From positions 2,170,001-2,234,000 of the forward strand of contig NC_134022.1 of the NCBI RefSeq assembly GCF_040712315.1: 64,000 nt of DNA, read 5' to 3'. Shown here in pieces: positions 25,395 to 57,920 of this stretch (its first letter is position 1; each line of letters opens with the position of its first letter). Origin of the DNA: Castanea sativa. Lineage: Eukaryota; Streptophyta; Magnoliopsida; Fagales; Fagaceae. The notes beneath the pieces were generated by a model. That model saw only the letters and a list, made by a program, of their open reading frames with translations, did no database searches and was not told the DNA's origin. The position numbers were made by a program, and so were the translations under genes.

Positions 25395-26247
25395 GGATAT
25401 AGCATTTCTCTTTTAGTTACCATAAAATTCACACCAGATAAATTTCATTATAATGAAAATTTAATAGTTTATTTATAATTAATATTAAAATGTGCCCAAC
25501 GTGATATTTCTTTTATAGAAGGATAATAATATGTTTATTTTTATAGGAATATGAAGCAAAATATAAAAGATAGAACAACTAAATTTAATGTGTGCGTGTA
25601 CATAAGGGTCTCATATTTGAACTGTGGCTACTTGGGGAAATAAAGAATAATTGCTCACACATAACAATCAAGGTGTTAACATGAGCTTTTTAAGTTGGTA
25701 GGTTTCGGCCTTGTGCCTAATCTTGGTTTCATGAGTGTTCTAGATAATCGCTCCAAATTTTATAGGAACACTTCCTACAAGGGGCTACAAAGTCACCAAA
25801 AATATATTAATACTAATGTGAATATAAACCCACTTATTCACATAAATAATATACCTATATTTGTCATGGTGAGAGTTTCAAAATAAAGATTGGAGTTAAA
25901 TGTAAGATGCTAACTCTCCATAAAAATTAAAACTTACACTTTTTTATTTATCACAAAATTCACTGCTAATAATTTCATCATAATGAGAATTTAAAATTTT
26001 ATTTATAATTAATATTAAAATGTGCCAACATGATATTTCTTTCATAGGATAATAATATTATGTTTATTTTTATCGGAATATGAAGCGAAATACAAATGAT
26101 TGTACAACTAAATTTAATGTGTGCATGTATACAAATGATAGAACAACGAAATTTAATGTGTGCGTGTATATAATGTGTGCGTGTACAACGAAATTTAGTT
26201 GTACTTCCTATAAGGGGCTACAAAGACACCAAAGATATATCAATACT
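25395..26247 (+). repeat. Tandem copies of the neprosin-gene upstream region
   Basis: Blocks that recur upstream of genes A and B are found here: AATTTCATTATAATGA, then ATAATATGTTTATTTTTAT, GGAATATGAAG, AACTAAATTTAATGTGTG, then CTTCCTATAAGGGGCTACAAAG and ATCAATACTAATG. One set runs about 25430-25610, the next about 25765-26110, and a third begins at 26205, is interrupted by Tat2, and resumes at 36712. No coding exon accompanies the first two sets, so they are promoter-region duplicates without genes. Confidence 0.75.
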
Positions 26248-26765
26248 TGTGAGGTTCTGAGGACCCGATAACCCGAAGACCCGAAGAGAGGAAGGCCGAC
26301 ATACAGTAGGTAAGATGGAGCAAAGGAGTAAGGGAAGTTACCTGAAAATACCCGAAGATGATGTGGCATGGGCATTGCTGACATAAGGGTTACAAATATC
26401 CGAAGGTGGTAGGCTAAGTTAGAGAGATGCATTAAATGCCCGACAACAACCATTCTGGCCGCATTAATTGGAAGATATCAGATCAATCCGTTGCATTAAT
26501 GTGGATATGACCTGAACAGTGTTGAATGCAAAGCTAGAACTCTGCTCCATTACCAACAGACAGGTGTCAGAAGGAAAAACATAGTAGATTGTGAGGTGTA
26601 GAGCCATGATGAAAAGAGCAAATAGTATAAATAAGAGTCGGGGCATTATAGAGAGGGGCTTTTTGTTGTTGAACCCTCTCTACCAAATGTATTGTACGAG
26701 GACTTTTAAGTGAATAAAGCAGCAGTAACGTTTTTAAGCTGGTTTATGAGTTTTTGGTCCTTACA
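26248..26765 (+). repeat. Tat2 5' LTR
   Basis: Starts TGTGAGGTTC and ends CCTTACA. A TATA box, TATAAATA, lies at 26626-26633, placing the probable transcription start about 30 bases on, within the LTR. Confidence 0.95.
26626..26633 (+). promoter_or_regulatory. Tat2 LTR TATA box
   Basis: TATAAATA inside the 5' LTR; the identical sequence is at 36567-36574 in the 3' LTR, from which transcription could read out toward neprosin gene A about 460 bp downstream. Confidence 0.6.
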
Positions 26766-26786: not shown

Positions 26787-26819
26787 AACAACAGCGTAGC
26801 ATATTCCATTTAGAAGTGT

Positions 26820-28889
26820 ATGGCGGAGGTGTATTTAGAAGGGGAAGAATCAGTAAGTTCACGAAGCAGGGACGTAGCTGTAAGTCTCCAGCGTGACAAG
26901 GGGAAAGGGCATACTTCGGGTGTGGTGAAGGAATATGATGGCGGTCAGAGGGCTGAGCAAAGATCGTTAACTGAGGGGCATATGTCTCGCGACGATGTAT
27001 TGCGACAGATGCAATCTGAGATAGCGTACTTACGCAAGCGCGTGGATAGTAAGAAGCGGAGACGTAAGGGTAATGCTAGCTCTTCCAGTGATAGTTCGGA
27101 AGCAAACCCAGGAGGAATTCATCCCCCAATGTTTGAGCCTACTCGAAGTATGACCCGTGCTAGTGTGTCTTCGGGCGTTAGGGCAAAGCAGCTGAAAGTG
27201 ACGAGGATGCCCGATACTGATGGAATATATCGCGAGGACGGGAGTGATGCAATGGGTAAAGCCTTGAGACAAATTGCCAAATCCCCTTTTGTGGCAAGGA
27301 TAAACAGGGCAAAGCTACCTCGTAGGTTTTCCCAACCCATCTTTACTGTGTATAACGGGAGGACTGACCCTGTAGAGCACGTTAGTCATTTTAGTCAGAA
27401 GATGGCCGTTTATTCGAATAATGAGGCATTGATGTGTAGAGTTTTTCCCTCCAGTTTGGGGCCCGTGGCTATGAGGTGGTTTGATGCTTTGGCAGAAGGT
27501 TCCCTGAGGTCTTTTGAGGAATTGACTAGGGCATTTGGAGCAAGGTTCATAACTTGTACAAGGATTCCAAAACCTTTGGATGCTCTACTGTCTATGTCTA
27601 TGAGGGAAGGTGAAACACTCAAAACCTATTCTGACCGATACTGGGAAACGTATAATGAAATTGATGGGGATGTGGAGAGTGTAGCCGTGAGAACTTTCAA
27701 GGTGGGTCTTCCCACGGAGCATGGGTTAAGAAAGTCTTTGACAATGAAGGCTGCGATAGACATGCGTCAGCTTATGGACCGGATAGATAAATATAAACGG
27801 GTAGAAGAGGATCAGATGCAAAGCAAAGGCAAAATGAAAGGGTATCTAGAGAGGAAGGATCTTCGGGTAGGGGGGTTTCAAGGTATTCGGCCCAAACGAG
27901 ACTTTACAAGCCATCCGAGGACCGCCGAGTCTCCTCTAGTTAACTCACTATTTAAGGAACCTGTGCATCACGTACTGGAGAAAATTCGGCATGAGCCATA
28001 TTTTAGGCCACCAAACAAAATGAGTGGAGATGCATCCATGAGGAACCAAAACCTCCACTGCCATTACCACCAGGATAAGGGACATACCACGGAGAAGTGC
28101 CGGACGTTGCGTGACCATTTAAATCAATTGATTAGGGCCGGGAAGATCAATCACTTATTGGCAAAGCCGAATGGGAATCAGGAACAACTAGATACTCGGA
28201 AATTTTGGGGTCAGGCCCCTCAACCATCTTTAGGCACTATTAACGTCATCTTGACCCAGACGAGAGGAGACTTTGGGAAACCTTCTCGGGTCATGACCGT
28301 TCAAAACAAGTGTGGGAATGAGGACGTGGAAGAGAATCATCAAACAAATAAAAGACTCAGATCCTCGGTGACGCTTACTTTGGGTTTTTCTGATAAGGAT
28401 AAAGAGGGAACGTTTCAACCCCACGATGATGCCTTGGTCGTCACAGTTCGTATCGGGGGATATGATGTGAAACGAGTCTTGGTGGACGATGGAAGTGGTG
28501 CCGAGATTATGTATCCGGACTTATTCAATGGATTAAAGTTGAAAGAGGAGGACTTGGAAAAATACGACCATCCCTTGGTCGGTTTTGATGGAAACCAGGT
28601 GATCCCACGAGGAATGATTAGGCTGCCCGTGCAGGTGGAGGGTTCCGAAGTACAGGTAAACTTCATAGTTGTTATGGCATATTCTCCATACACGGCCATT
28701 TTGGCTAGACCGTGGTTGCATGCAATGGAGGCAGTTTCATCAACTTTACATGTGATGGTGAAGTACCCTACAGGGGGAAGCGTGGGAGTGTTACATGGCA
28801 GTCAAACGGTGGCTAGGCAATGTCTAATGTCTGCCACTATTCGCACAGGCCGAGGTTCGTTGGAAGGGGAAGTTCCTGAGACATCATAG
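26820..28889 (+). CDS. Tat2 Gag-protease polyprotein
   Basis: 689 codons from ATG. Residues 1-130 are charged and of low complexity. The capsid-like retrotrans_gag region is about 160-300 (FTVYNGRTDPVEHVSHF, MRWFDALAEGSLRSFEELTR). A zinc knuckle of the form CxYHxxxxHxxxxC lies at 414-427. The aspartic protease follows at about 540-650 with active site VDDGSGAE (Asp556 by position). The frame ends in TAG at 28887-28889, but the same frame continues directly into RT, so this stop probably arose by mutation, or less likely is a read-through point between protease and RT. Gag would form the particle around the element RNA and the protease would cut the polyprotein. Confidence 0.88.
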   Translation: MAEVYLEGEESVSSRSRDVAVSLQRDKGKGHTSGVVKEYDGGQRAEQRSLTEGHMSRDDVLRQMQSEIAYLRKRVDSKKRRRKGNASSSSDSSEANPGGIHPPMFEPTRSMTRASVSSGVRAKQLKVTRMPDTDGIYREDGSDAMGKALRQIAKSPFVARINRAKLPRRFSQPIFTVYNGRTDPVEHVSHFSQKMAVYSNNEALMCRVFPSSLGPVAMRWFDALAEGSLRSFEELTRAFGARFITCTRIPKPLDALLSMSMREGETLKTYSDRYWETYNEIDGDVESVAVRTFKVGLPTEHGLRKSLTMKAAIDMRQLMDRIDKYKRVEEDQMQSKGKMKGYLERKDLRVGGFQGIRPKRDFTSHPRTAESPLVNSLFKEPVHHVLEKIRHEPYFRPPNKMSGDASMRNQNLHCHYHQDKGHTTEKCRTLRDHLNQLIRAGKINHLLAKPNGNQEQLDTRKFWGQAPQPSLGTINVILTQTRGDFGKPSRVMTVQNKCGNEDVEENHQTNKRLRSSVTLTLGFSDKDKEGTFQPHDDALVVTVRIGGYDVKRVLVDDGSGAEIMYPDLFNGLKLKEEDLEKYDHPLVGFDGNQVIPRGMIRLPVQVEGSEVQVNFIVVMAYSPYTAILARPWLHAMEAVSSTLHVMVKYPTGGSVGVLHGSQTVARQCLMSATIRTGRGSLEGEVPETS

Positions 28890-31800
28890 CAATTAAAGGA
28901 GGCTGCTCGGGAAGTCGGCCTAGTGGAGGATGAAGGATCTGCCGAGAAGCTAACCAAGGTAATTATTGGGGAAGATAAAGAGAAGTATTTTCAAGTCGGA
29001 TCCAAGCTGCCGACACAGGAAAGAGAAGAGTTGATTCAATTCTTGCGAGATAATATTGATGTTTTTGCATGGACGACTTATGATGTACCAGGAATTAATC
29101 CAGAAGTTATCTGCCACCATTTGAATATTAACCCTCATGCGACGCCTAGACAGCAGCCTCCTCGGCGAGCATCTCAAGAGCACGCCGAGGCAGTTAAAGA
29201 GGAGGTTGGTAAGCTAAAGCAAGCCGGTGCGATCAAGGAGATCTTCTATCCTGAATGGCTGGCCAATACTGTCGTAGTAAAAAAGAAGAATGGGAAATGG
29301 AGAGTCTGTATTGACTTTACAGATCTGAATAGGGCATGTCCCAAGGATCCTTTCCCTATTCCTAGAATTGACCAATTGGTGGATGCAACTGTGGGGCACC
29401 CCCGAATGAGCTTCTTGGATGCGTTCCAAGGGTATCATCAAATCCCGTTGTCACTGAATGATCAGGAGAAGACGGCTTTTCGTGCCCCGAATGGTAACTA
29501 CCATTACCGAGTAATGCCCTTTGGTCTAAAGAATGCAGGGTCCACTTATCAACGAATGGTGACCAGAATGTTTGATGCGCAGTTGGGACGTAACATGGAA
29601 GCTTATATTGATGATATGGTAATCAAAAGTAAGAAGACAGAAGACCATTTGACAGATTTACAGGAGACCTTCTCGGTGTTAAGAAAGTATAAGTTACGCT
29701 TGAATGCATCAAAGTGTTCTTTCAAAGTGGGCTCGGGAAAATTTTTGGGGTACATGATTACTCATCGGGGCATTGAAGTTAATCCTGACCAAATTAAGGC
29801 TGTCTTAGGATTGCATCCCCCTCGGAACCCGAAAGAGGTGCAGAAGTTAGCTGGCATGATTGCAGCCTTGAACAGGTTCATTTCATGGTCCGCAGACAGG
29901 TGCCGCCCATTTTATCGCCTTTTGTACAGGTGGAAAGATTTCTAGTGGTCTAACGAATGCAATTTGGCTTTTGAGGATTTAAAGCAATACCTATCTAGAC
30001 CGCCGATATTATCGACGCCCGAGAAGGAAGAAGTGCTATATGCTTATCTAGCCGTTACAAATCACTCCATAAGTCTTGTCTTAATACGGAATGATGACGG
30101 GGTCCAGAAACCAATATACTATGTCAGCAAGTCCTTGCAAGAAGTTGAACAGCGATACCTACTGCTGGAAAAAGCGCTTCTAGCCGTGGTGCACGCAACA
30201 AGGAAATTGCCTCATTACTTTCAAGCTCACACCGTGGTAATACTCACTCAGTTGCCTCTACAAGCTATCACGCGGAAGTCAGATTATACGGGTCGTGTAG
30301 CAAAGTGGGGAACCAAGCTGGGAGCTTATGATATCAAGTATATGCCCCGGACAGCTATCAAAGGGCAAATCCTTGCCGACTTCGTGGCCGAGTTCACGGA
30401 CGGTCAGGCTCACCCCGAAGATGCCGTGATGACAATAATGTCCATTGGAACGGAAAATATCACTCCATGGGAAGTCTACACGGATGGGGCATCAAATCGA
30501 AAGGGAGCCGGGGTTGGAGTTGTGTTAATATCCCCCGAGAAACTAGTCATTGAAAAGTCATTGAGGTTGGGATTCCCAGCAACTAATAATGAGGCCGAGT
30601 ATGAGGCTCTCTTAGTGGGCTCCCAGATGGTTAGACATTTGGGAGGGAAAGTAGTGAGGGTGTTCTGTGATTCCCGATTGGTGGTCGGGCAAGTTAATGG
30701 AGAGTTTGAGGCAAAAGATGAGCGGATGAAAAGCTATCTGAAACGAGTCCAAGGGGTGTTGGGTTTGTTTGACAGTTTCAAGGTACAGCAAGTCCCAAGG
30801 GGACATAATTCTCATGCTGATTCATTAGCAATGTTAGCCACTTCGCTGGGATCGAAGTTACCGCGTATGGTTATGGTGGAGGATTTGTTGTCCTCTAGCT
30901 TGACCAGCATCCCGGCCGTACGGGTTCACAGCATTCATGTAGGCCCAAGCTGGATGGACCCAATTATAGCTTTCTTACAGCACGGAATACTACCTGAAGA
31001 TGGAAAAATGGCCGAGACGATACGAAGAAGCGCACCCCGTTACTGGCTATCGGAGGAGCAAAAACTCTATAGGCGTTCCTATTCAGGTCCGTACCTCCTT
31101 TGCGTACATCCTGAAGCCGTGGAACCTTTGCTGGAAGAATTGCATGAGGGTGTGTGTGGGAGCCACACTGGAGGAAGATCATTAGCTCATAGAGCCATGA
31201 CCCAAGGGTATTGGTGGCCAAGCATGCAGAGAACCTCTCAAGAGTATGCCAAGAAGTGTGATCAATGTCAAAGGTTTGCGCCCAATGTACATTAACCAGG
31301 AGGTAACTTAAATCCGTTGTCCAGCCCATGGCCCTTTGCTAAGTGGGGTTTAGATATCGTCGGGCCGTTTCCTCGGGCAACGGGTAATAGGAGATGGCTC
31401 ATCGTCGGCACGGATTACTTCACGAAATGGGTGGAGGCCGAGCCGTTAGCCAACATTAGGGATGTGGATGCAAAAAGATTCATCTGGAAAAATATCATAA
31501 CTCGCTTCGGGGTCCCACACACCTTGATATCTGATAATGGTCTTCAATTTGATAGCAAGGTTTTCCGGCGGTACTGCGCAGAAATGGGAATAAGAAATGG
31601 ATATTCCACACCGTACTATCCCCAAGGAAATGGACAGGCCGAAGCAACAAATAAAGTCATCTTGGCAGGTTTGAAGAAACGATTGGATGACGCTAAGGGA
31701 GGCTGGGTAGAAGAATTACCTCATGTGTTATGGGCTTATCGCACTACACCCCGAAGATCAACAGGCGAGACTCCCTTTTCAATGACGTATGGAATGGAAG

Positions 31801-32189
31801 CTATAATACCATTAGAGTCAGGTTTTCCCACCCTGAAGTCCGACCAGTATGACGAAGCGAGCAATCACGATCTGATGTATGATTGTTTGAATACTATTGA
31901 GGAAAGTAGAGAAATAGCCAATGTGAAGATGGGCAACTATCAGCAGAAGCTCAAGCAGACATATGACAAGGGAGTTAGGACCAGGCCCTTGGTACCAGGA
32001 GATTTGGTACTAAGAAAGGTAGTGGGGGTAGCAAAGAATCCCGCCTAGGGAAAGTTGGGTCCTAACTGGGAGGGGCCATATAGAATTACCTCAATGGCAG
32101 GTGTAGGGGCTTATCGTTTAGAGGATCTGGATGGAAGGGTGATTCTTCGCCCTTGGAATGTAAATAACTTACGACGATATTATTATTAA
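28890..32189 (+). pseudogene. Tat2 pol: RT-RNase H-aRNH-integrase (three stops)
   Basis: In phase with gag. RT about 28930-29700 with FTDLNRACPKDPFPIPRID and catalytic YIDD at 29604-29615. First RNase H about 29960-30420. A second RNase H of the Tat type at 30460-30860 (YTDGAS, NNEAEYEALL, FCDSRLVVGQV, SHADSLA). Integrase: zinc-binding HHCC part 31130-31280 (ending KKCDQCQRF), core with WGLDIVGP, SDNGLQF and GQAEATNK carrying the D-D-E residues, and a C-terminal GPY-type end at 32189. In-frame stops: TAG 29943, TAA 31293, TAG 32046. The last two align with glutamine in the sister elements. Apart from these the protein is complete, so loss is recent. Confidence 0.9.
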
Positions 32190-32240
32190 GAAAAGAATCT
32201 CCTTTTGTGTGAGGCTTCTGTTCGTTTCAATTCTGTATCG

Positions 32241-32955
32241 GCAAAAAGCATAAGTATTAAACTGACCTTAGTGCTTGTTCGGCTCCTCGGGCCACAAGTC
32301 TAAGAGAAATTAATCACTTGCAAAAAGCATAAGTGTTAAACTGACCTTAGTGCTTGTTCGGCTCCTCGGGCCACAAGCCTAAGAGAAATTAATCACTTGC
32401 AAAAAGCATAAGTGTTAAACTGACCTTAGTGCTTGTTCGGCTCCTCGGGCCACAAGTCTAAGAGAAATTAATCACTTGCAAAAAGCATAAGTGTTAAACT
32501 GACCTTAGTGCTTGTTCGGCTCCTCGGGCCACAAGCCTAAGAGAATTTAATCACTTGCAAAAAGCATAAGTGTTAAACTGACCTTAGTGCTTGTTCGGCT
32601 CCTCGGGCCACAAGCCTAAGAGAATTTAATCACTTGCAAAAGCATAAGTGTTAAACTGACCTTAGTGCTTGTTCGGCTCCTCGGGCCACAAGTCAAAGAG
32701 AAATTAATCACTTGCAAAAAGCATAAGTGTTAAACTCACCTTAGTGCATGTTCGGCTCCTCGGGCCACAAGCCTAAGAGAATTTAATCACTTGTAAAAGC
32801 ATAAGTGTTAAACTGACCTTAGTGCTTGTTCGGCTCCTCGGGCCACAAGTCTAAGAGAAATTAATCACTTGCAAAAAGCATACGTGTTAAACTCACCTTA
32901 GTGCTTGTTCGGCTCCTCGGGCCACAAGTCTAAGAAAAATTAACCACTTGCAAAC
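32241..32955 (+). repeat. Tat2 tandem array, 79-bp unit, ~9 copies
   Basis: Nine near-identical units containing AAAAAGCATAAGTGTTAAAC, GACCTTAGTGCTTGTTCGGC and TCCTCGGGCCACAAG. Two units are one to two bases shorter. Each has an inverted repeat CTTGT..GGC/GCC..ACAAG. It starts about 50 bp after the integrase stop codon. Confidence 0.95.
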
Positions 32956-33402
32956 CATTACACAGGAATTGTAAGTCCAACAAGATCACGACTAAAGAAT
33001 CTCAAACATCTAAAGCAGTGGCATAAATAAATCATTAAGTCTCGTTGCTTGTTATCATATAGGATTTTATGCCTTCTCTCAAACGTCAAAAGGTTGAGTA
33101 ATGAAGTTATGGAACTTAGGTTAAGCTTTTCGCGTTTCTTAAAAATCACAAGTACAACGAACAAGTTAAAGTAGTATTATGATCTTTTTTAGTAAGCTTC
33201 TGAATGCGTATAAAGTAACAGTTGCAGGGTAGCGCATTGAAATAAGACTTGTGTATAAAACAATAGAAAAGGACTAAACATTAATCTCTTAACAAATATC
33301 CGTTACAAAATGGGGGCAATTATGTAACCCCTTACATCCGATAAAAAAATATATAAGTAAGAAAACAGCAAAAAGAAGAAGGAAACAACTATGATAGAAT
33401 GA

Positions 33403-35844
33403 TTAGGCAACAGGCTGTTTGTCCTTCCTTTTCTCTGGTTCTTTATCTTTTTTCTTCTTTTTTGGCTCTTCAGCCACATCACCCTCAACTACTCCTTCCA
33501 CAGACTGAGCTGGGGGAGAATGGCCTTTGGAGGCTGCTGCATCAGAAGGATCAGGAACAGGAACAGGCGCAACTGTTTCACTTGGTGGCATGGGAGGATC
33601 AGGAGCAAGCCATAATGCCGAAGGATAGTAAACACTATCTGGAGCTCGAAGTTCAGCATCGGCAGCCACCCCAGCAGCATCCAAGGCATGACCCCAGACC
33701 TCCAAGCAAAACGCCCTGGCAACACCTTTGAGTTGGGCGGCCAAGCTATCCGAAGCCTTTTTCATGCCTGCATCATATGTTGCTTGTTCCGCTACGGCCT
33801 GTTCCTGCTCCTTGGCGGCTAGTTTGTCTTGAGCTTGCTTAAGCTCAATGACAGTAAGAGCAAGTCTGCTTTGAGCTTGTTTTTGAGCCTCAAGAGCAAG
33901 GTTTTCTTGAGACTCGTAGCTCTTCAGGGCCGACTCAGCATTCTTGTGAGCCTTCTCTACCTCGGACAGGTGGGTGAGGGTCTCTTTCAAGTTCAGCTCA
34001 GCTTCTTTTTGTGCCCTCACTGCCGCCTCGGCATTCTGATCAGCTTTTCGGGCAAGATCCAGTGAGTGATCTACCCATTCCTCAGCCATGAATGAAGCTT
34101 GGACCGCCTATGATGTATTTGAGTAAAAAAGAGTTAGTCATAATAAAGAGTTAAATTCATGTATAAAATGTGCAAAGGTTTGAAAAAATACCTTGGCTAA
34201 GTCCTGCTTCAAAGACAAGAAAACCTCCCTCTTACGGAAGGATCTTAATTCTGCCATATCCTCTGGAAGGCATAGAGCCTTCTCTAGACACTCGGCCACC
34301 AGGCTCGAGCTTCCCTTCTTCGGGTCTCTCAGGTTCGCGTCATCCATAACAGGACTGCCCGAACTGAGAGTAAAGTTGGGTCGCCAAGCTGACGCCTTCT
34401 TTGTAGGCTCACTACTGGGGTCCTTAGAGGAACCAGTAGGAGCAACCTTCTTGGAAAGGGCTTTCGCAGCCCTGGTATCTTTAACGGAAGGGTCGAGATT
34501 CTCCCCTTCTTCAATTTCTATCACGTGCTTGCTACTCTGGCCCCTTTTCCGTTTCTTATCCGTCACCTCCGAGGAAAGTGCACGGGTAGTAACTGGAGTG
34601 ATCGGACGAGGAGGAACCGGAATCGCCGGTGAAGAGTCGCCCGCATGCGCCTGCAGCAAGGCCAACAAGTCGGGCTCCTTCTCTTGAAAACCCATTTCGC
34701 TGGTTGACGGATTGGAGCTGGAAGGAGCGTCTGGACGGTAGAACACCTCGAAGTCCTTCTCGGTCACCTCGGAAGGATTTGGCTCGGGCGTATCAACTCT
34801 TTCCTCGGCTACAAGATTAGTGGCCTAGTCCAAGGGGGGATAAACTAACTGGGCCGCAAGAGGGGCTGGGAGCTGTGCGTCTTGAGTTCCTGCAGGAGGA
34901 GGTGCGAGCAATAAAAACCCAGGGGCCGCAACGTCAATCCGAGCTAAGCGTAGGTCTCTTGCTCTAATTACGTTCTTCGGGCTTTGGAAGCGTTTAGTAG
35001 ATGGTGTGTACCCGAGGATAATGTGGGCTGCTAGGAGTTGTCCGTCCCGGTGTACAAATATCTCTGACCGAAGAATCCGGTTTAGATCAGCTCGATTTAC
35101 AGCAGACAAATTCGGAGCAGTATGGAAGTCGTCTACAATAAGAAACGAAATGGTTAGAATGAATAAGTTAAGCAAAGCAGAACATATAAAAATTTTTGGT
35201 CATTCCTAAGTGCCAGGCCAGTCTTCGGGAATACTACCTGGCGTCCCTTCTCGGGTTGGGCAGTGTAAGCCATCATGCCAGTTGCCCGAGACGACAAGGT
35301 AGTCTTCGTCCATCCCTTTACTCGAATCGGGTAAGCAGGAGATCAACCTAACGGAAGGAAATCTACATTTCATGTAGTATTTAGTCCTATCCCCTTTTAG
35401 GCAGTTGTACACCCAGTTTACATCTTGCCATGTCAAATTGGTCCCCATTTTTCGGTTAAGCGCGTCTACGCATCCTAAGATTCTAAGGACGTTTGGGGAA
35501 CATTGTGAGGGGGTAAGCCTGTAGTTTATTAAAAAATCTCTGGTTACCCTACCCATAGGAATTTCCATGCCCCCCTTGATGAACGCAATCATGGGAATTA
35601 AAACGGACTCAGGGGGGCGAGGTGCGAGTGGAATTTCTTCTTCCTCACAATACGTGATGGTTACGTCATCAGGGATCCTATACCGATTTTTAAAGGCAGC
35701 CTTTGCCTCATCCGTGTTTACTAGCTTAGCGTACCTACCCATTAATCCCCGCGGTAAGAGAAGAGAAGCAAGCAAGTAGAGAGAAACGAAAGGAAAAGGA
35801 ACACACCTCTGAAGATCGCTTAAAGATGGTCCTCGGGAGCTCAC
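33403..35844 (-). pseudogene. Tat2 antisense gene, three exons, coiled-coil C-terminus
   Basis: Exons by reading splice sites: 35844-35214, 35132-34192 and 34107-33403 (631+941+705 bases = 759 codons). The second intron (84 bp) has GT-AG ends at AAG|GTATTT and TCATAG|GCGG; the first (81 bp) would be GC-AG (G|GCACTT), perhaps a decayed GT. Exon 1 carries a PF04195-like part (FLINYRLTPSQCSPNVLRIL). Exon 2 is Pro/Ser-rich and basic (DKKRKRGQSSK), exon 3 a long Ala/Glu/Gln coiled coil (about 150 residues) and a Lys-rich end. One TAG at 34825-34827 sits where CAG would fit. Antisense genes at this site are known in Tat elements; their function is not established. Confidence 0.75.
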
Positions 35845-36188
35845 TCTTCTTTCAATCCTTCAAAGTGCCAAAATGAACCACATCCAGCCAAAGGGTGTGC
35901 TTTTATAGGGGAGGGGTAAAAGAAATAAGAGCGGTAACTTTCCCGCTCATAATTGAAAGCGGGATCTGGACCGTATATTACTCATCCAGCCATAGAACGT
36001 GCGTGGGAAAAAGAAACGCCAGGTTCCATAAATGCTCCATCGTGGGATACGAGGCGCCAGGCGCGGGTCATGGGGCAGCGAAGAGACGACTATACGTGTG
36101 AAAACAAAGGGAAGGTCAGAAGCGTGTGTAAGGTGTTAAAACTTAGTTATTAACTAGTCATTAATAACTCAAGTGTTAAAGGGGCTAT

Positions 36189-36706
36189 TGTGAGGTTCCG
36201 AGGACCCGAGAACCCGAAGACCCGAAGAGAGGAAGGCCGACATACAGTAGGTAAGATGGAGCAAAGGAGTAAGGGAAGTTACCTGAAAATACCCGAAGAT
36301 GATGTGGCATGGGCATTGCTGACATAAGGGTTACAAATATCCGAAGGTGGTAGGCTAAGTTAAAGAGATGCATTAAATGCCCGGCAACAACCATTCTGGC
36401 CGCATTAATTGGAAGATATCAGATCAATCCGTTGCATTAATGTGGATATGACCTGAACAGTGTTGAATGCAAAGCTAGAACTCTGCTCCATTACCGACAG
36501 ACAGGTGTCAGAAGGAAAAACATAGTAGATTGTGAGGTGTAGAGCCATGATGAAAAGAGCAAATAGTATAAATAAGAGTCGGGGCATTATAGAGAGGGGC
36601 TTTTTGTTGTTGAACCCTCTCTACCAAATGTATTGTACGAGGACTTTTAAGTGAATAAAGCAGCAGTAACGTTTTTAAGCTGGTTTATGAGTTTTTGGTC
36701 CTTACA
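36189..36706 (+). repeat. Tat2 3' LTR
   Basis: 518 bp, five differences from the 5' copy, TG...CA ends, followed by the ATACT duplication. Confidence 0.95.
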
Positions 36707-36711
36707 ATACT

Positions 36712-37032: not shown

Positions 37033-39735
37033 ATGGCTAGAAGGATTGTCTTATTGGTTTTGTTCACATTGTTTCTTTCTTTTAGCAGTAATGATGTTGG
37101 TTGCAAGAGAATTTATCGAGAAGATCACATGGAGTTGAAAAGGCAACATGAGCTTTTAAATAAGTTGGTCAAGAAAACTATTCAGGTGAGATCAATATTT
37201 CCATTGTATGTGTATATATATTTATGTTGAAGAAATAATGTTGCAGCTATTATAGTGACAAAATGATTTTGTGATTTGTAGACAAAGTATGGCGATACAT
37301 ATGATTGCATAAATTTCTATGAACAACCGTTCTTCAATTATCATTCACTCAAGAACCATACTCATGATTTTCCAGTAAACTTCTATTACTATGTCACATT
37401 TTTCTAATTTTTTTATACTTTTTTTTTTTTTTATAAAGAAAAGTAACACTAACTTCAATATTGAATTAATTAATGTACAGGTGAGATATACCTCCAATCC
37501 CGAAGGAAGCAGAGACCAAAAGTCTTCACCACTATTTAACCCATCTAATTTTTGGCTAAATGGTAAAGGTTGTCCAGATGGTATGGTTCCCATTAAGAGA
37601 AATACAGAGAATGATCTCAAAAGGGCAAAGTTAGCTACAGAGATACATAACTCAATATATAAACCACTCACTATTGATAGACCTGGTACTCATGTGAGTT
37701 ATCATTGCTACACTCTAATTGAGTTTTATTTATTTCATACATTTGCATATAATTTGTGTTGTAGTTGTAGTTGGTTCCTTTTTTGTATATTATTTTCTTT
37801 TGATAGGAAAATAAATAGTATCTAATTATGTCAAGCAATAGCTGTGTGTGAATTATTTTTTTTAAACTAATACACAGTACCCCAACCCCACCCAATACCA
37901 TATTAATGATATATATGTGATTGATTATTTTTTGTTGAGAACAAATTTATTAATTTGAGGGATAAAAGAGGAGACAAAATAGAATACATGAGAGTTTATG
38001 CAGTTCTTATCAACATACAAGCTAAGGGACAAAAGCTGAAAGTGATACAATAATGTGTCATTCACTTATAATAATACACTACAATGGATAGCACTGATAT
38101 CGGTCGGGTTTGGTCAAGCTAAAGGGAGATTTTCACGGTTTTGCTAGATTCAAAACCAATACAGACTGATACTTTATCAAAGCCGTACCAAACTAACCAT
38201 GAAAGCCACGGTTCGGCCAGTTTGGCGTGATTAGAGTTTTTTCAGTTTCCTTAAATCATCTATTTAATTCTCAAAAAGAGTGAGTAGCATCGTTACCCCT
38301 TAGAAATCAATCTATTGATTCATTAGCCAATCTCATGATTTTCTTTTAACAATCAACGACTTGATATTGTCTTCAATGAATTTCAAAAATCTCATGATAT
38401 ATATTCTTTGGCTTTAAATTTATTGATTTGACCTTCAATGACATGCAAATATATTTATAGTATCCTAAAAATTCAGCATATAAATCACAAAAAAGAAAAA
38501 GAAAAAAAGACATTGTTGTTAATTATGGTGTGATTGATGATTAGTAATTTGGCTTGGAGTGCATAAGCACACACATACTCAATGTGCAACTAGAGTTGGA
38601 GGAGAAACACAATGAGTAATCACACAATTTCCTCTAAGAATAATTTTCAAATGATTGCTTTAAAATGTTATATATTATTCTCAGTATGCTGTAGTGCGGA
38701 CAAAACATACGAACGTGTACCATGGAGGTTCTGCAATCATCAGCATATATGGCCTAGGAGTCTCAGAAACTCAATACAGTTCTGCTCGCATAAAGGTTCA
38801 AAATGGTCCGGATAGCATAGAAGTTGGATGGACAGTAAGTGATAGAGGAAACAAGTTTACAATATGTATCTATGTATGTAAATGAGCTTGTTAAATCTAA
38901 TACTCATTTCTTTTTGTCTTAGGTAAATCCAACCTTGTACAATGATGTTCTTACCCGATTATACACATTTACAAAAGTAATTAATATATTTTTTTTCTAT
39001 TCATATTTTGTTCTATTAATTATGTAATAAACTGCACTATTTACCTACCTTTTCATATTGATGTTTCCATCTACAGACAGCTAATTCCTCATGCTTCAAT
39101 ACATTATGTAATTCAATAATTCCTACAAGTACGGATATTCCTCTTGGCGCTGCTATAGAGCCAAGTTCGACCGTAAAACAGCAATTTGAGATGAAATTCA
39201 TGCTTTTTTGGGTAAATAAATAGATATATGTTTTTATATAGATGTGTGTGTGTGTGCGCGTTTCTTTGGTACTAACCTCTTTGTGCATCAAGTATGATAC
39301 AAAAAAAGCACATAATTTGTTCTTACTTCCTGTGTTTGTGTTTTTTCTCTTGAATGATAGGATTCTAGCAATGGAAACTGGTTTCTAAAATTTGGTCAAG
39401 ATGAAACTGTAATCGGATTTTGGCCAAAAAATGTATTCACTGCTTTAGGAGATGGTGCTAATTTCGTTGAATGGGGAGGAGAGGTTTTTAGTCCTCCTGG
39501 TGTGCCTAGCCCTCCCATGGGCTCTGGGATTAAGTTAAAGAAAGACACCACATACGATGCATATTGCAGGCAAATTAAAACAATTAATGAGACTGATTAT
39601 GTTGTGAATGCTGTTGATACCGAAGCTTTTGCAGATATTGCACAATATGAAGTTTTTGATGTAGAAGAATATGGTCGAGCTGATATTCAGCACATGCTAC
39701 TATTTGGGGGTTCGGGTGGTTATACTGGGACTTAA
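37033..39735 (+). CDS. Neprosin-family (DUF239) secreted protein, gene A, 7 exons
   Basis: Exons read from the sequence: 37033-37185, 37282-37374, 37481-37693, 38685-38834, 38923-38976, 39077-39211, 39361-39735. All introns are phase 0 with GT-AG ends, giving 390 residues. Residues 1-24 are a signal peptide (LVLFTLFLSFSSNDVGC). About 25-150 correspond to the neprosin activation peptide (KTIQ, TKYGDTYDCINFYEQPFF) and about 165-390 to the neprosin domain (ARIKVQNGPDSIEVGW, WFLKFG, IGFWP, VEWGGEVFSP). Neprosins are glutamic peptidases that cut after proline; E199 (IEVGW) and E307 (WGGEV), 108 apart, fit the two catalytic Glu of neprosin (109 apart). The start at 37033 is chosen because copy B is conserved from there. 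Length is normal for the family. Probably secreted, substrate unknown. Confidence 0.88.
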
Positions 39736-39739
39736 GATT

Positions 39740-41120
39740 TCTAATTTTTCTTTTGGTTCAGTGCATGTATTCTTATCAAATAATTTAATATTTTGATCAA
39801 TAAAATGACTTTCAAATCAACTTTCAACTCACTATACTTATAGCATGAATATTGTTGTCTATTTTCCATCTAAGAGAAAAGAGCCATAAGTGATCAAATG
39901 CAAATGATTAATGAGACCATTATTAATGCAGAATACCAGAAACTGAGAAAGATGCAAAGAAATGTAGTACAAAGCCAAACAAACGAAGATTCTCATTGTT
40001 AACTTTGCCTAGTGTAGCAAAGATATCAGGACATCCTTAGTCGATGGCAGATGGGAAGACTGAGTAACATGCTGACTTCTCATTTGACACAAAATACCAG
40101 AAACAGATTGTTGATGCCATAGAATCTGTTCAGTTGTTTGCTTCTCTGTTTAAAGTTAGGAATGTCTGTCGTGGTCAATCTCTGGAATGCTTGAAGCATG
40201 ATACAGGCCTAAAGTAATTGAGATAATACTCGTAAGTAAATAAAAATATGGAAACAAAGACTCAAAGTAATTTCTATCTCACCTGAATTACATTGTCCTG
40301 AAATCAAAAACTTTTCTGCACTCCCTTTGAGTTCATAATTCCATAAACTTCTTGACTCAAGGTAACCATATATAACAATGATAAGAATGAGAAGGGATGG
40401 TTGCTTGAGTATCTTCTTTGATGACTGACAATTACACTCAAGTAAGATCTGCTTGATCTAATAATTTAAGGTATATAACATTTAACCAAAAGCTAGACAT
40501 CTTATAACATGATAGATTGATAGTTATAACTATATCCTTGATAATCAGAATTTTATATATAACACTAAAATTTTTGACATGTACTCATTTTAACTGGATT
40601 TCATTCACTAGTTTAAGATGGATTTGTTTTACATTGACAGTGAAATCCATTGAAAAGAAGAAAACGATTATACCCTGCAAATTCAGAATCAGGGTCATCT
40701 ACTTTATTTTACTGAGTCATCAGAACATTATGTTGTCCTCATGCTCTTTGTTCTTCATCCCTAACATGTGTGGATTGTGTTGAAGTTTCTGCACAGATTA
40801 GGTTATTGTGAACTTAGTTTTGTTTGACATGGTGCCATTGGAGACACCATGAATTTCTTTATTTTGATAGCTAATAAAAATACACAACACAACTCACACC
40901 TGCACAAATTGAGCCCCTGACCTCACCTTCACATTGATTTGTTCTAGGATTACTAGCTTCACATTGAGTTTGAACTAAGAAACAGATAATAAAAATTTCC
41001 TTTGTCTCATGGCATTAGCTAAATTAGAACCATAAAACATTCATTAACAATGGAATCATCCAGCATGTTAAAGCAGCTCTAAAATATAATCTTAACAACC
41101 TTAAATAGTATGTGTTTACA
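39740..41120. repeat. Duplicated segment downstream of gene A
   Basis: About 1.35 kb that recurs after copy B at 56546-57920 with scattered substitutions and small indels (for example AATGCAGAATACCAGAAACTGAG, CTAACATGTGTGGAT). I recognise no gene; one short minus-strand reading frame is open in the B copy and broken here. Confidence 0.7.
39799..39804 (+). terminator. Poly(A) signal of neprosin gene A
   Basis: AATAAA 64 bases after the stop codon; the same motif with the following ATGACTTTCAA is present after copy B near 56590. Confidence 0.6.
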
Positions 41121-50569: not shown

Positions 50570-50734
50570 ACAAAGGGTAAAGAAAACAGCAACATTTTCC
50601 TCCTCATTTCCAGTTTATTTTTTAGATAGTCATAGTTTCTACTTACTAAAGTCATAGTTTTTATTTTCTTTGAACAATATAGTCTACCAGTCAAATTATA
50701 ATAAAAGGAGTTTCATTCAGAACGTATGAAATGT

Positions 50735-51390
50735 GTTTTGCTCAAAATCTACTAAGTCCACAAAGTGGACGGATCATCCAAAATGGATGAAATCAGGTCC
50801 ACATAGTGGATAGATCTCTACTGAGTCCACAAAGTGGATGGATCATCCAAAATGGATGAAAATTTGTCGAGCCCACATAGTAGACGAAACTCTACTAAGT
50901 CCACAAAGTGGACGTATCATCCAAAATGGATGAAAATTTATCGAGTCCACATAGTGGACGAAACTCTACTAAGTCCACAAAGTGGACGGATCATCCAAAA
51001 TGGATGAAAATTTATCGAGCCCACATAGTGGATGGATCTCTACTGAGTCCACAAAGTGGACGGATCATCCAAAATGGATGAAAATTTGTCGAGCCCACAT
51101 AGTGGACAGAACTCTACTAAGTCTACAAAATGGACGGATCATCCAAAATGGATGAAAATTTATCGAGTCCACATGGTGGACAGATCTCTACTAAGTCCAC
51201 AAAGTGGACGGATCGTCCAAAATGGATGAAGATTCATCGAGTCCACATTGTGGACGAATCATCCTACAAGGATGAAAATATAATTCCACATGGTGGATGG
51301 GTAATCCAATACGGATAAAAGTGTAATGTCCACATAATGGACGGGTCATCCAAAAGGATAAATGTGTCCAGAAAATGGACGGATCAACCT
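50735..51390 (+). repeat. Tat3 tandem array, ~74-bp unit, ~8-9 copies
   Basis: Units built of three short palindromes: GTCCACAAAGTGGAC, ATCCAAAATGGAT and TCCACATAGTGGA. The phrase TCTACTAAGTCCAC (or TCTACTGAG) recurs at about 50748, 50817, 50891, 50965, 51038. Copies become irregular after about 51240. Same position as the arrays of Tat1 and Tat2. Confidence 0.9.
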
Positions 51391-54843: not shown

Positions 54844-56545
54844 TTAATGATTTTCCAGTAAACTTCTATTTCTATGTCCCGTTTTTCTAATTTTTTAGTT
54901 TTTTTTTTTTTTTTAATGAAGAAAAGTAACACTTACTTCAATATTGAATTAATAAATGTACAGGTGAGATCTGCCTCCAACCCTGAAGGAATTAGAGACC
55001 AATAGTCTTCACCACTATTTAATCCATCTAATTTTTGGCTAAATGGTAAAGGTTGTCCAGTTGGTATGGTTCCCATTAGGAGAAATACCATGGCTGATCT
55101 CAAAAGGGCAAAGTTAGCTACAAAGATACATAACTCAAAATATAAACCACTTACTGTTGATAAACCTGGTACTCATGTGAGTTATCATTGCTACACTCTA
55201 ATTTATTTTTATTTATTTCATACATTTACACATATTTTGTGTTGTAGTTGTAGTTGACTTCAATGACATGCAAATATCTTTATAGTTTCCTACAAATTTA
55301 GCATATAAATCACAAAAAATATATACATGAGTTTGCTGTTAACTATGGTGTGATTGATGATTAGTAACTAGGCTTGGAGTGCATAAGCACACACATACTC
55401 AATGTGCAACTAGAGTTGGAGGAGTAATACTAAGAATAATTACACATTTTCTTTTATAAATAATTTTCAAATGATTGATTTAAAATGTTATATATTTTTC
55501 TCAGCATGCTATAGTGGGGACAAAAAATAAGAACGTGTACCATGGAGGTTCTACAAGCATCAGCATATATAACCCAAAAGTCAAAGGAACTCAATACAGT
55601 TCTGCTCGCATAAAGGTTCAAAATTATCCAGATAGCATAGAAGTTGGATGGACGGTAAGGGATAGAGGAAAAAAGTTTACAATATGTATTTATGTACGTA
55701 TATGAGCTTGTTAAATCTAATACTCATTTCTTTTTGTCTTAGGTAAATCCAACCTTGTACAACGATACTCGTACTAGATTATACACATTTACAAAAGTAA
55801 TTAATATTTTTTTTTTCTATTCATACGCAGTTCTATTAATTATGTAATAAACTACGCTATTTACAGAGCGAAATCCTCATGCTTCGATACATTATGTAAT
55901 TCACTAATTCCTGTGAGGACGGATATTCCTCTCGGCATTCCTATAGAGTCAATTTCAACGCCAGAACAGCAATTTGACTTGCAATTAATGCTTTTTTGGG
56001 TAAATAAATAGATACATGTATTTATATAGATGTGTGTGTGCATGTGCGTGTGTGTGCATGTGCGTGTGTGTTTCTTTGGTACTAACCTCTTTGTGCATCA
56101 AGTATGATACAAAAAAAGCACATAATTTGTTCTTACTTCCTGTGTTTGTGTTTTTTCTCTTGAATGATAGGATTCTAGCAATGGAAACTGGTTTCTAAAA
56201 TTTGGTCAAGATGAAACTGTAATCGGATTTTGGCCAAAAAATGTATTCACTGCTTTAGGAGACGAAGCTAATTATGTTGAATGGGGAGGAGAGGTTTTTA
56301 GTCCTCCTGGTGTGCCTAGCCCTCCCATGGGCTCTGGGTATAGTTAAAGGTTAGAAGAAAACACCAAATATGATGCATATTGCAGGCAAATTAAAACAAT
56401 TAATGAGACTGATTATGTTGTGAATGCTGTCGATACTGAGAGTTTTTCAGATATCGTACAATATCAAGTTATTGATGAAGGAAGAGTAGGTGCAGATCAG
56501 CACCTAGTACTGTTTGGGGGTGTGGGTGGTCATATTGGAAAATAA

Positions 56546-57920
56546 AGATTTCTAAGTTTTCTTCTGGTTCAGTGCATGTATTCTTATCAATAAAATGACT
56601 TTCAAGTCAACTTTCAACTAACAACACTTCTAGCATGAATATTGTTGGCTATTTTCCATCCAACAGTGAACCATAAGTGATCAAATGCAAATGATGATGA
56701 GACCATTATTAATGCAGAATACCAGAAACTGAGATGCAAAGAAATGAAGTACAAACGAAGATTCTCATTGTTAACTTTGCCTAGTGTACCAAAAATATTA
56801 GGACATCCTTAGTTGATGGCAGATGGGAAGCCCGGGTAACATGCTGACTTCTCATTTGACACAAAATACCATAAACAGATTGTTGATGCCATAGAATCTG
56901 TTCAGTTGTTTGCTTCTCTGTTTAAAGTTGAGAATGGCTGTCGTGGTCAATCTTTGGAATGCTTGAAGCATGATACTGGCCTAAAGTAATTGAGTTAATA
57001 CTTATAAGTAAATAAAAATATGGAAACAAAGAGTCAAAAGTAATTTCTATCTCACCTGAATTACATTGACCTGAAACCAAGCACTTTTCTGCACTCTTTT
57101 TGAGTTCATAATTTCCATGAACTTCTTGACTAAATTCCCTTTCTAGGTAACCATATATAACAATGATAAGATTGAGAAGGGATGTTTGCTTGAGTATCTT
57201 CTTTGATGACCGACAATTAGGCTCAAGTGAGATCCGCTTGATTTAATAATTTAAAGAATATAAGATTTAACCAAAAGCTAGACATCTTATAACATGATAG
57301 ATTGATAGTTATAACTATATCCTTGATAATCAGAATTTTATATAAAACACTAAAAATTTTGCCATGTACTCGTTTTAACTGGATTTCATTCACAAGTTTA
57401 AGATGGATTTGTTTTACATTGACAGCGAAATCCATTGGAAAAAGAAAAGGGTTATACCTTGGTTCAGACTTGGAGCCACCTACTTTGTTTTTCTGAATCA
57501 TCGGAACATTATGTTTGTCCTCATGTTCTTTGTTCTTCGTCCCTAACATGTGTGGATCATCTTGAAGTTTCTGCACAGATTAGGTTATTGTGAACTTAGT
57601 TTTGTTTGACACAGTGCCACTGGATACACCACGAATTTCTTTATTTTGATAGATAAAATAGACAATGCAACTCACACCTGCACAGATTGAGTCCCTGACC
57701 TCACCTTCCTTATAGGGTGATGAGATGCCACTTGTTCCAAGATCACTAGCTTCACATGGAGTATGAACTAAGAAACAGATAAAAAAAATTTCCTTTGTAT
57801 CATGGCATTAACTCAATAAGAACCATAGAACATTCATTAACAATGGAATCATCCAGCATGTTAAAGCAGCTCAAAAAATTTAATCTTTACAACCTTAAAT
57901 AGTATATGGTTTTGGCATGT
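56546..57920. repeat. Duplicated segment downstream of copy B
   Basis: Paralogous to 39740-41120. On the minus strand at 57223-57576 a frame MQKLQDDPHMLGTKNKEHED remains open; in the A copy the same stretch has a 1-base deletion. I do not recognise the product. Confidence 0.7.

What the first reader, a model, noticed from the sequence alone, without database searches (positions are those of the whole stretch)
33403..35844. A spliced gene on the antisense strand of a retrotransposon, with introns that survive retrotransposition
Seen: in Tat2 the minus strand downstream of integrase reads as three exons whose spliced length is a multiple of three (2277 bases), with a clean 84-bp GT-AG intron joining in phase and only one stop. 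Known: antisense ORFs downstream of pol occur in Tat-lineage elements, but their role is open. Inference: since the genomic RNA is the opposite strand, splice signals of this gene are not recognised in it, so introns can pass through reverse transcription unchanged. The protein (PF04195-like start, disordered basic middle, coiled-coil end) may act in trans or on chromatin.
Basis: partly seen in the sequence, partly recalled or inferred. Interest (0 to 1): 0.8.

Follow-up and report, generated by a model that had tools for sequence, protein, structure and literature searches.

The report
Spliced antisense gene in chestnut retrotransposon
A jumping element of sweet chestnut carries, on the strand opposite to its main genes, what looks like a real protein gene in three exons whose two introns are kept through copying, so the little-understood extra genes of this class of elements may have been read in pieces until now.

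Summary
Downstream of integrase in the 26.2-36.7 kb Tat element the minus strand carries a three-exon gene of 716 codons: exon 1 35742-35238, intron 1 35237-35133 (GT-AG, phase 1), exon 2 35132-34192, intron 2 34191-34108 (GT-AG, phase 0), exon 3 34107-33403. Across 40 further genomic copies plus this one, donors never vary, intron lengths vary freely modulo 3, 8 of 41 copies are open throughout, and dN/dS is 0.09-0.18, near that of integrase. The one stop is private to this copy. TATAAAA upstream of the ATG is invariant. A distant Tat family in the same genome has two introns in the same phases; splicing it reproduces an NCBI Castanea sativa protein (LOC142640050) exactly. No copy with intron 2 precisely removed was found. 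The antisense Transposase_28 ORF of Retand elements is known; its being one spliced gene with conserved introns is not reported in the papers I could read. Splicing is inferred: no RNA was available. Function: probably a nuclear accessory protein (inference).

The parts
35238..35742 (-). exon 1 (168 codons + 1 base), carries the Transposase_28-like domain
   Evidence: open with unchanged length in 36 of 40 fetched copies; PF04195 E=0.0043, below the curated cut-off; dN/dS 0.04-0.09
35133..35237 (-). intron 1, 105 bp, GT-AG, phase 1
   Evidence: GT 41 of 41, AG 37 of 41; lengths 102-113 with all residues mod 3 and an in-frame stop in 40 of 41
35153..35157 (-). CTAAC, branch-point-like motif of intron 1
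   Evidence: CTRAY at this distance in 34 of 41 copies
34192..35132 (-). exon 2: second conserved part, then a stretch disordered in the model of a relative, partly basic
   Evidence: dN/dS 0.10-0.19; model of P0004
34825..34827 (-). in-frame stop (codon 271) of this copy
   Evidence: found in 1 of 41 copies
34108..34191 (-). intron 2, 84 bp, GT-AG, phase 0
   Evidence: GT 40 of 40 present, AG 39 of 40; in-frame stop in 39 of 39 measured, all residues mod 3
34133..34137 (-). CTAAC, branch-point-like motif of intron 2
   Evidence: CTRAY at -25 or -26 in 28 of 39 copies
33403..34107 (-). exon 3: coiled-coil-like part and lysine-rich C-terminus, ends in the stop codon
   Evidence: dN/dS 0.12-0.22; C-terminal K-run in 31 of 37 copies; long helix in the model of a relative
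35901..35907 (-). TATAAAA, likely core promoter of the antisense gene
   Evidence: invariant in 41 of 41 copies; zone divergence 0.016 against 0.25-0.28 in introns in the deepest band
31296..32048 (+). 3' part of pol (integrase), sense strand, used as the control gene
   Evidence: dN/dS 0.11-0.13 in the same copies
32162..33034 (.). array of 79-bp repeats between pol and the antisense gene
26248..26765 (+). 5' LTR; target-site duplication ATACT at 26243-26247
36189..36706 (+). 3' LTR, 99.0% identical to the 5' LTR; ATACT at 36707-36711

Best explanation
The element carries a genuine three-exon gene on the strand opposite to gag-pol, between pol and the 3' LTR, with a TATA promoter of its own just outside the 3' LTR. 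Shown by sequence: coding in the spliced frame, purifying selection on all three exons close to that on integrase, two GT-AG introns with branch-point-like motifs kept in nearly every copy examined and matched in position and phase by a distant Tat family. Inferred: the gene is transcribed by Pol II from the integrated DNA, the antisense RNA is spliced and exported, and a protein of about 716 residues is made. The introns survive each round of copying because the genomic RNA that is reverse transcribed is the other strand, where they read CT...AC and are not spliced. Inferred with less certainty (about 0.4): the protein (Transposase_28 domain, disordered middle, coiled-coil end) oligomerises and acts in the nucleus as an accessory protein of the element, much as the HTLV antisense protein HBZ does and maize Grande GENE23 is thought to.
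For: dN/dS 0.09-0.18 over the spliced frame in four identity bands, shifted frames 1.46 and 1.70; integrase of the same copies 0.11-0.13 against 0.10-0.19 for the antisense gene in the same pairs; 20 non-overlapping pairs: 908 nonsynonymous against 1126 synonymous changes, pN/pS 0.24. Intron interiors diverge nearly as third codon positions do (0.25-0.28 against 0.29-0.38 in the deepest band) while the donors do not vary. Intron lengths in all residues mod 3 with in-frame stops inside (40 of 41; 39 of 39), so only the spliced form joins the three frames into one protein. A second family, 32% identical to the window in exon 1 (P0007): NCBI protein LOC142640050 of Castanea sativa is reproduced 569 of 569 residues by removing a 91-bp phase-1 and an 84-bp phase-0 intron, with integrase on the opposite strand downstream. 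Third family in the window: a phase-1 GT-AG intron after the Transposase_28 exon. Spliced-junction probe 0 against 46 intron-containing places. TATAAAA 41 of 41.
Against: No RNA data: splicing is not shown. This copy itself has an in-frame stop at codon 271, and 33 of 41 copies are not open throughout. Acceptor 1 is broken in 4 of 41 copies and acceptor 2 in 1 of 40. The 40 copies are ranks 2-41 of 150 listed, ranked by exon 1 protein similarity, which flatters exon 1's dN/dS. In the closest band the antisense gene is less constrained than integrase (0.19 against 0.12). Exon 3 has an ATG at its codon 7 in 39 of 41 copies, so it could have a start of its own. The spliced-join probe for intron 1 did not complete. 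In the second family a CTRAY motif is found in intron 1 of only 5 of 10 loci. A basic K[KR]3 patch in exon 2 is present in only 26 of 40 copies. The model of exon 1 (mean pLDDT 68.9) matches no solved or viral structure, so the fold gives no support to DNA binding.
Confidence: 0.85

Rival explanations
1. The three pieces are separate, unspliced antisense ORFs. Only the Transposase_28 ORF (exon 1, ending at the stop just inside intron 1), and perhaps exon 3 from a start of its own, are translated from an unspliced antisense RNA; the 'introns' are degenerate spacers.
For: 38 of 41 copies place an in-frame stop soon after donor 1, and the first part of intron 1 is somewhat less diverse (35231-35214: 0.147; the next three blocks 0.197, 0.291, 0.174), so intron retention would give a short protein. 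Exon 3 has an ATG at its codon 7 in 39 of 41 copies. The published survey lists such ORFs singly (PMC11963269).
Against: Exon 2 is under selection in the frame that splicing joins to exon 1 and has no ATG in its first 60 codons in the window copy; donor GTs are invariant at sites flanked by near-neutral sequence; an NCBI gene model of a distant family uses the same two introns.
Confidence: 0.07
2. The conserved thing is an antisense regulatory RNA that forms duplexes with the genomic RNA and triggers or buffers silencing; the reading frame is incidental.
For: A review proposes that antisense transcripts of plant LTR elements may do this (PMC7264820).
Against: Third codon positions and intron interiors diverge freely while first and second positions do not; an RNA-only function does not predict dN/dS of 0.1. 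It may still coexist with the protein.
Confidence: 0.03
3. The gene is real and spliced, but its protein counters host silencing or acts in the particle in the cytoplasm rather than in the nucleus.
For: No fold match points to DNA binding; the basic patch in exon 2 is not universal (26 of 40).
Against: The review reports nuclear localisation for the Grande antisense protein (PMC7264820), and PMC11963269 predicts DNA-binding residues in the domain; lysine-rich C-terminus in 31 of 37 copies.
Confidence: 0.3

Closest known systems
Antisense Transposase_28 (TRP28, PF04195) ORF of Retand-lineage LTR retrotransposons (Vicient 2025, PMC11963269)
   Same: Antisense, between pol and 3' LTR, Transposase_28 region, tandem arrays often nearby, in several clusters also other antisense ORFs ('Smc'); TRP28 reported in 97% of clusters.
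   Different: That survey used ORF prediction with a 600-bp cut, and the word intron does not occur in its main text (supplements not read). Here the pieces look like exons of one gene with two conserved introns.
Grande gene23 and other aORF-3R (review PMC7264820)
   Same: Antisense accessory gene downstream of pol; for Grande the review reports an own promoter upstream of the gene and a nuclear protein.
   Different: No sequence was held for comparison, and the primary paper is not in the library. The parts of the review read (1 and 2 of 3) report no introns in it, but do ask for a look at antisense and spliced transcripts.
HTLV-1 HBZ and HTLV-2/3/4 APH antisense genes (review PMC10186651, passages)
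   Same: Spliced antisense transcripts of an integrated retroelement whose genomic RNA is the other strand; regulatory proteins, mostly nuclear.
   Different: HBZ and APH-2 transcripts start in the 3' LTR; the plant gene has an internal TATA motif. No homology is claimed; this is a 'works like' comparison.
Ogre intron (sense strand; mentioned in PMC6317226, passages)
   Same: Intron within a plant Tat-clade retrotransposon.
   Different: [quoted passage not shown] the present introns are antisense and need no partial splicing to persist.

Membership tests
Antisense TRP28 gene of Retand elements (aORF-3R) | antisense to gag-pol, between pol and 3' LTR | tested here: met
   gene 35742-33403 minus; integrase ends 32048 plus; 3' LTR from 36189
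Antisense TRP28 gene of Retand elements (aORF-3R) | Transposase_28 domain (PF04195) above the curated cut-off | tested here: inconclusive
   this copy 17.7 bits against 26.2; related exons in the two other Tat elements of the window pass (28.8 and 29.2 bits); 47 of 69 aligned relatives match at E<=0.01
Retand lineage | position in the reverse-transcriptase tree; extra RNase H domain between RH and INT | not tested
   no tree was built; the assignment rests on the antisense gene, long pol-3'LTR region and tandem array
Spliced gene | joined antisense cDNA | not testable with these tools
   no RNA data
Spliced gene | conserved splice sites with intron lengths free modulo 3 and exon frames kept | tested here: met
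HBZ-like antisense regulator | nuclear protein that changes LTR-driven transcription | not testable with these tools
   function by analogy only
HBZ-like antisense regulator | transcription start inside the 3' LTR | tested here: inconclusive
   invariant TATAAAA at 35907-35901, about 280 bp outside the 3' LTR, points to an internal start; no start site was mapped and a start in the LTR is not excluded

The most novel reading that the evidence does not exclude
The antisense genes of Retand elements throughout flowering plants are one ancient, intron-bearing gene, and the several antisense ORFs reported per element are its exons. Because a spliced messenger could not have delivered introns in this orientation, the gene must have entered an ancestral Tat element as genomic DNA, or as the antisense strand of a read-through transcript, and the element has kept a complete host-type gene (promoter, exons, introns) through all later rounds of reverse transcription.
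Probability: 0.45. Interest if true: 0.78.

Novelty: new variant of a known kind. Interest (0 to 1): 0.62.

Why it matters
The role of the antisense genes of Tat/Retand elements is an open question in the papers read. If they are spliced, an ORF-based survey saw fragments, and the full-length protein can now be named and tested. Intron positions also give a handle on where the gene came from, and the case shows how a retroelement can carry introns indefinitely. It further warns that at least one such gene (LOC142640050) stands in a plant gene set under an uncharacterized-protein name.

Full report
WHAT IS THERE. The window is C10:2170001-2234000 of a 716-Mb genome in 13 contigs. Contig C6 has the same length, 62,754,968 bases, as the contig of NCBI protein LOC142640050 of Castanea sativa, and that protein is encoded on C6 without a difference, so the host is taken to be sweet chestnut. 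The element has LTRs of 99.0% identity and a 5-bp target duplication ATACT (read). gag-pol lies on the plus strand and its frame ends at 32048; a 79-bp tandem array follows; the antisense gene fills most of the space to the 3' LTR.

GENE MODEL. On the minus strand: ATG 35742-35740; exon 1 35742-35238; intron 1 35237-35133 (105 bp); exon 2 35132-34192; intron 2 34191-34108 (84 bp); exon 3 34107-33403; 716 codons. That is not tenable: 38 of 41 copies have an in-frame stop between 35237 and 35213, and the GT at 35237 is invariant. Gene models of Lithocarpus, Quercus suber and Quercus lobata read across at the homologous residue; their DNA was not seen.

COPIES. An exon 1 search of the genome scored and listed 150 places out of 7765 candidates. 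Ranks were by exon 1 protein similarity, which biases exon 1 towards conservation but does not select on exons 2 and 3 or the introns directly. Splice sites: intron 1 GT 41 of 41, AG 37 of 41; intron 2 GT 40 of 40, AG 39 of 40, one copy lacking the region. Intron 1 is 102-113 bp; intron 2 is 77-101 bp apart from one copy of 528 and the missing one. Lengths fall in all residues modulo 3, and in-frame stops lie inside 40 of 41 and 39 of 39 (two copies left out by size). CTRAY stands 21 bases before the end of intron 1 in 34 of 41 copies (none in range in 5), and 25 or 26 before the end of intron 2 in 28 of 39; a shuffled window intron has CTRAY somewhere in -15 to -50 in 16% and 22% of trials. 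Eight of 41 copies are open and in frame throughout; the other 33 have at least one stop or frame-breaking indel. The stop of the window copy is in none of the 40 others.

SELECTION. dN/dS (ratio of sums) of the spliced frame is 0.09, 0.10, 0.13 and 0.18 in four bands of pair identity from 0.70-0.83 to 0.94-1.00; by exon 0.04-0.09, 0.10-0.19 and 0.12-0.22; the two shifted frames give 1.46 and 1.70. Integrase, in the 35 of 40 copies that held at least 300 bases of it plus the window, gives 0.11, 0.12, 0.13 and 0.12, against 0.10, 0.11, 0.14 and 0.19 for the antisense gene in the same pairs. The sense-strand frames that share the wobble position give 0.15-0.19, as expected, but carry 3.1-8.3 stops per copy; the others give 1.2-3.5. 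With 20 non-overlapping pairs: 908 nonsynonymous and 1126 synonymous changes, pN/pS 0.24. In the deepest band intron interiors diverge by 0.28 and 0.25, third positions by 0.29-0.38, second positions by 0.03-0.12, donor GTs by 0, acceptor AGs by 0.07 and 0.03. Upstream, TATAAAA at 35907-35901 is unchanged in 41 of 41; the zone 36150-35930 diverges by 0.13, about half the intron rate.

OTHER FAMILIES. P0007 (LOC142640050), 32% identical to the window's exon 1, is reproduced 569 of 569 by splicing L049 with introns of 91 bp (phase 1) and 84 bp (phase 0), GT-AG both. Integrase lies on the opposite strand downstream, so this annotated protein is also an antisense gene of a Tat element. In ten loci of that family donor 1 is GT in 9, acceptor 1 AG in 8, donor 2 GT in 9, acceptor 2 AG in 9, and CTRAY is in range in intron 1 of 5. 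Matches of P0007 across the genome break repeatedly near residues 170 and 474. In the window's third element a phase-1 GT-AG intron follows the Transposase_28 exon; four in-frame pairs are possible, all phase 1, and the 76-bp one has the best acceptor by eye. Transposase_28 passes the curated cut-off in the first and third elements, not in this one.

RETENTION OF INTRONS. The spliced exon 2-exon 3 probe (29 letters, up to 3 mismatches) has no match in the genome; the same exon ends separated by GTA, 60-90 bases and AG match exactly at 46 places, with 0 in the reversed control. The probe for the first join did not complete in 16 tries. On the plus strand both introns read CT...AC. The principle is the one used on purpose, in the opposite sense, in retrotransposition reporters (PMC12786077, passages).

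FUNCTION. A model of the Lithocarpus relative P0004 (704 residues, mean pLDDT 59.7) has an ordered N-terminal region and one long helix 459-578, with a low-confidence middle. The window's exon 1 alone models at pLDDT 68.9 and matches nothing known. The nuclear-accessory reading rests on literature: nuclear GENE23 of Grande (review PMC7264820, parts 1 and 2 of 3 read), predicted DNA binding of TRP28 (PMC11963269, parts 1-3 of 5 read), and the analogy with spliced antisense HBZ and APH (PMC10186651, passages). It is not shown here.

WHAT IS KNOWN. PMC11963269 reports antisense ORFs in its 63 tabulated clusters and TRP28 in 97% of clusters, 104 antisense ORFs over 600 bp in total; several clusters have TRP28 only in an ORF under 600 nt. 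The word intron does not occur in its main text. Exon 1 here is 505 nt and exon 3 is the coiled-coil part, so I infer that separate TRP28 and 'Smc' ORFs there may be exons of one gene; I could not check this. The 2020 review already says that antisense and spliced transcripts should be looked for. Ten full-text searches (listings, with passages of the few papers named here) showed me no report of introns in such a gene; most subscription papers, including the two primary papers I asked for, are not held.

VERDICT. A real, selected antisense gene, spliced by inference; the antisense gene is known, the intron structure and its conservation are the new part.

Noticed in passing
26814-32048 (+): gag-pol of this element is one continuous frame broken by three in-frame stops (28887-28889, 29943-29945, 31293-31295), so the copy looks non-autonomous although its LTRs are 99% identical.
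   Followed up: no
L009-L048, integrase against antisense gene: Pairwise distances of integrase and of the antisense gene agree only weakly (36 copies, Mantel r 0.38; 5' half of the gene against integrase r 0.09, 3' half 0.43), which suggests recombination between copies near the antisense gene.
   Followed up: partly
35237-35214: 38 of 41 copies have an in-frame stop soon after donor 1, and this first part of intron 1 is mildly less diverse than the rest (0.147): intron retention would give a TRP28-only protein.
   Followed up: partly
34089-34087: Exon 3 has an in-frame ATG at its codon 7 in 39 of 41 copies, a possible start of its own.
   Followed up: no
15489-15004 and 53850-51707 (-): The two other Tat elements of the window also carry antisense Transposase_28 exons; the last one seems by eye to have one intron more.
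   Followed up: partly
L049 (G000 C6, about 45627780-45629660): NCBI gene LOC142640050 of Castanea sativa is an antisense gene of a Tat element annotated as an uncharacterized protein.
   Followed up: yes
37364-41117 and 54847-57912: A stretch of several kilobases is repeated on both sides of the third element at 84-94% identity, as if a duplicated region had been invaded.
   Followed up: no
50718-51309: A 74-bp tandem array lies between pol and the antisense gene of the third element, like the 79-bp array of the second.
   Followed up: no
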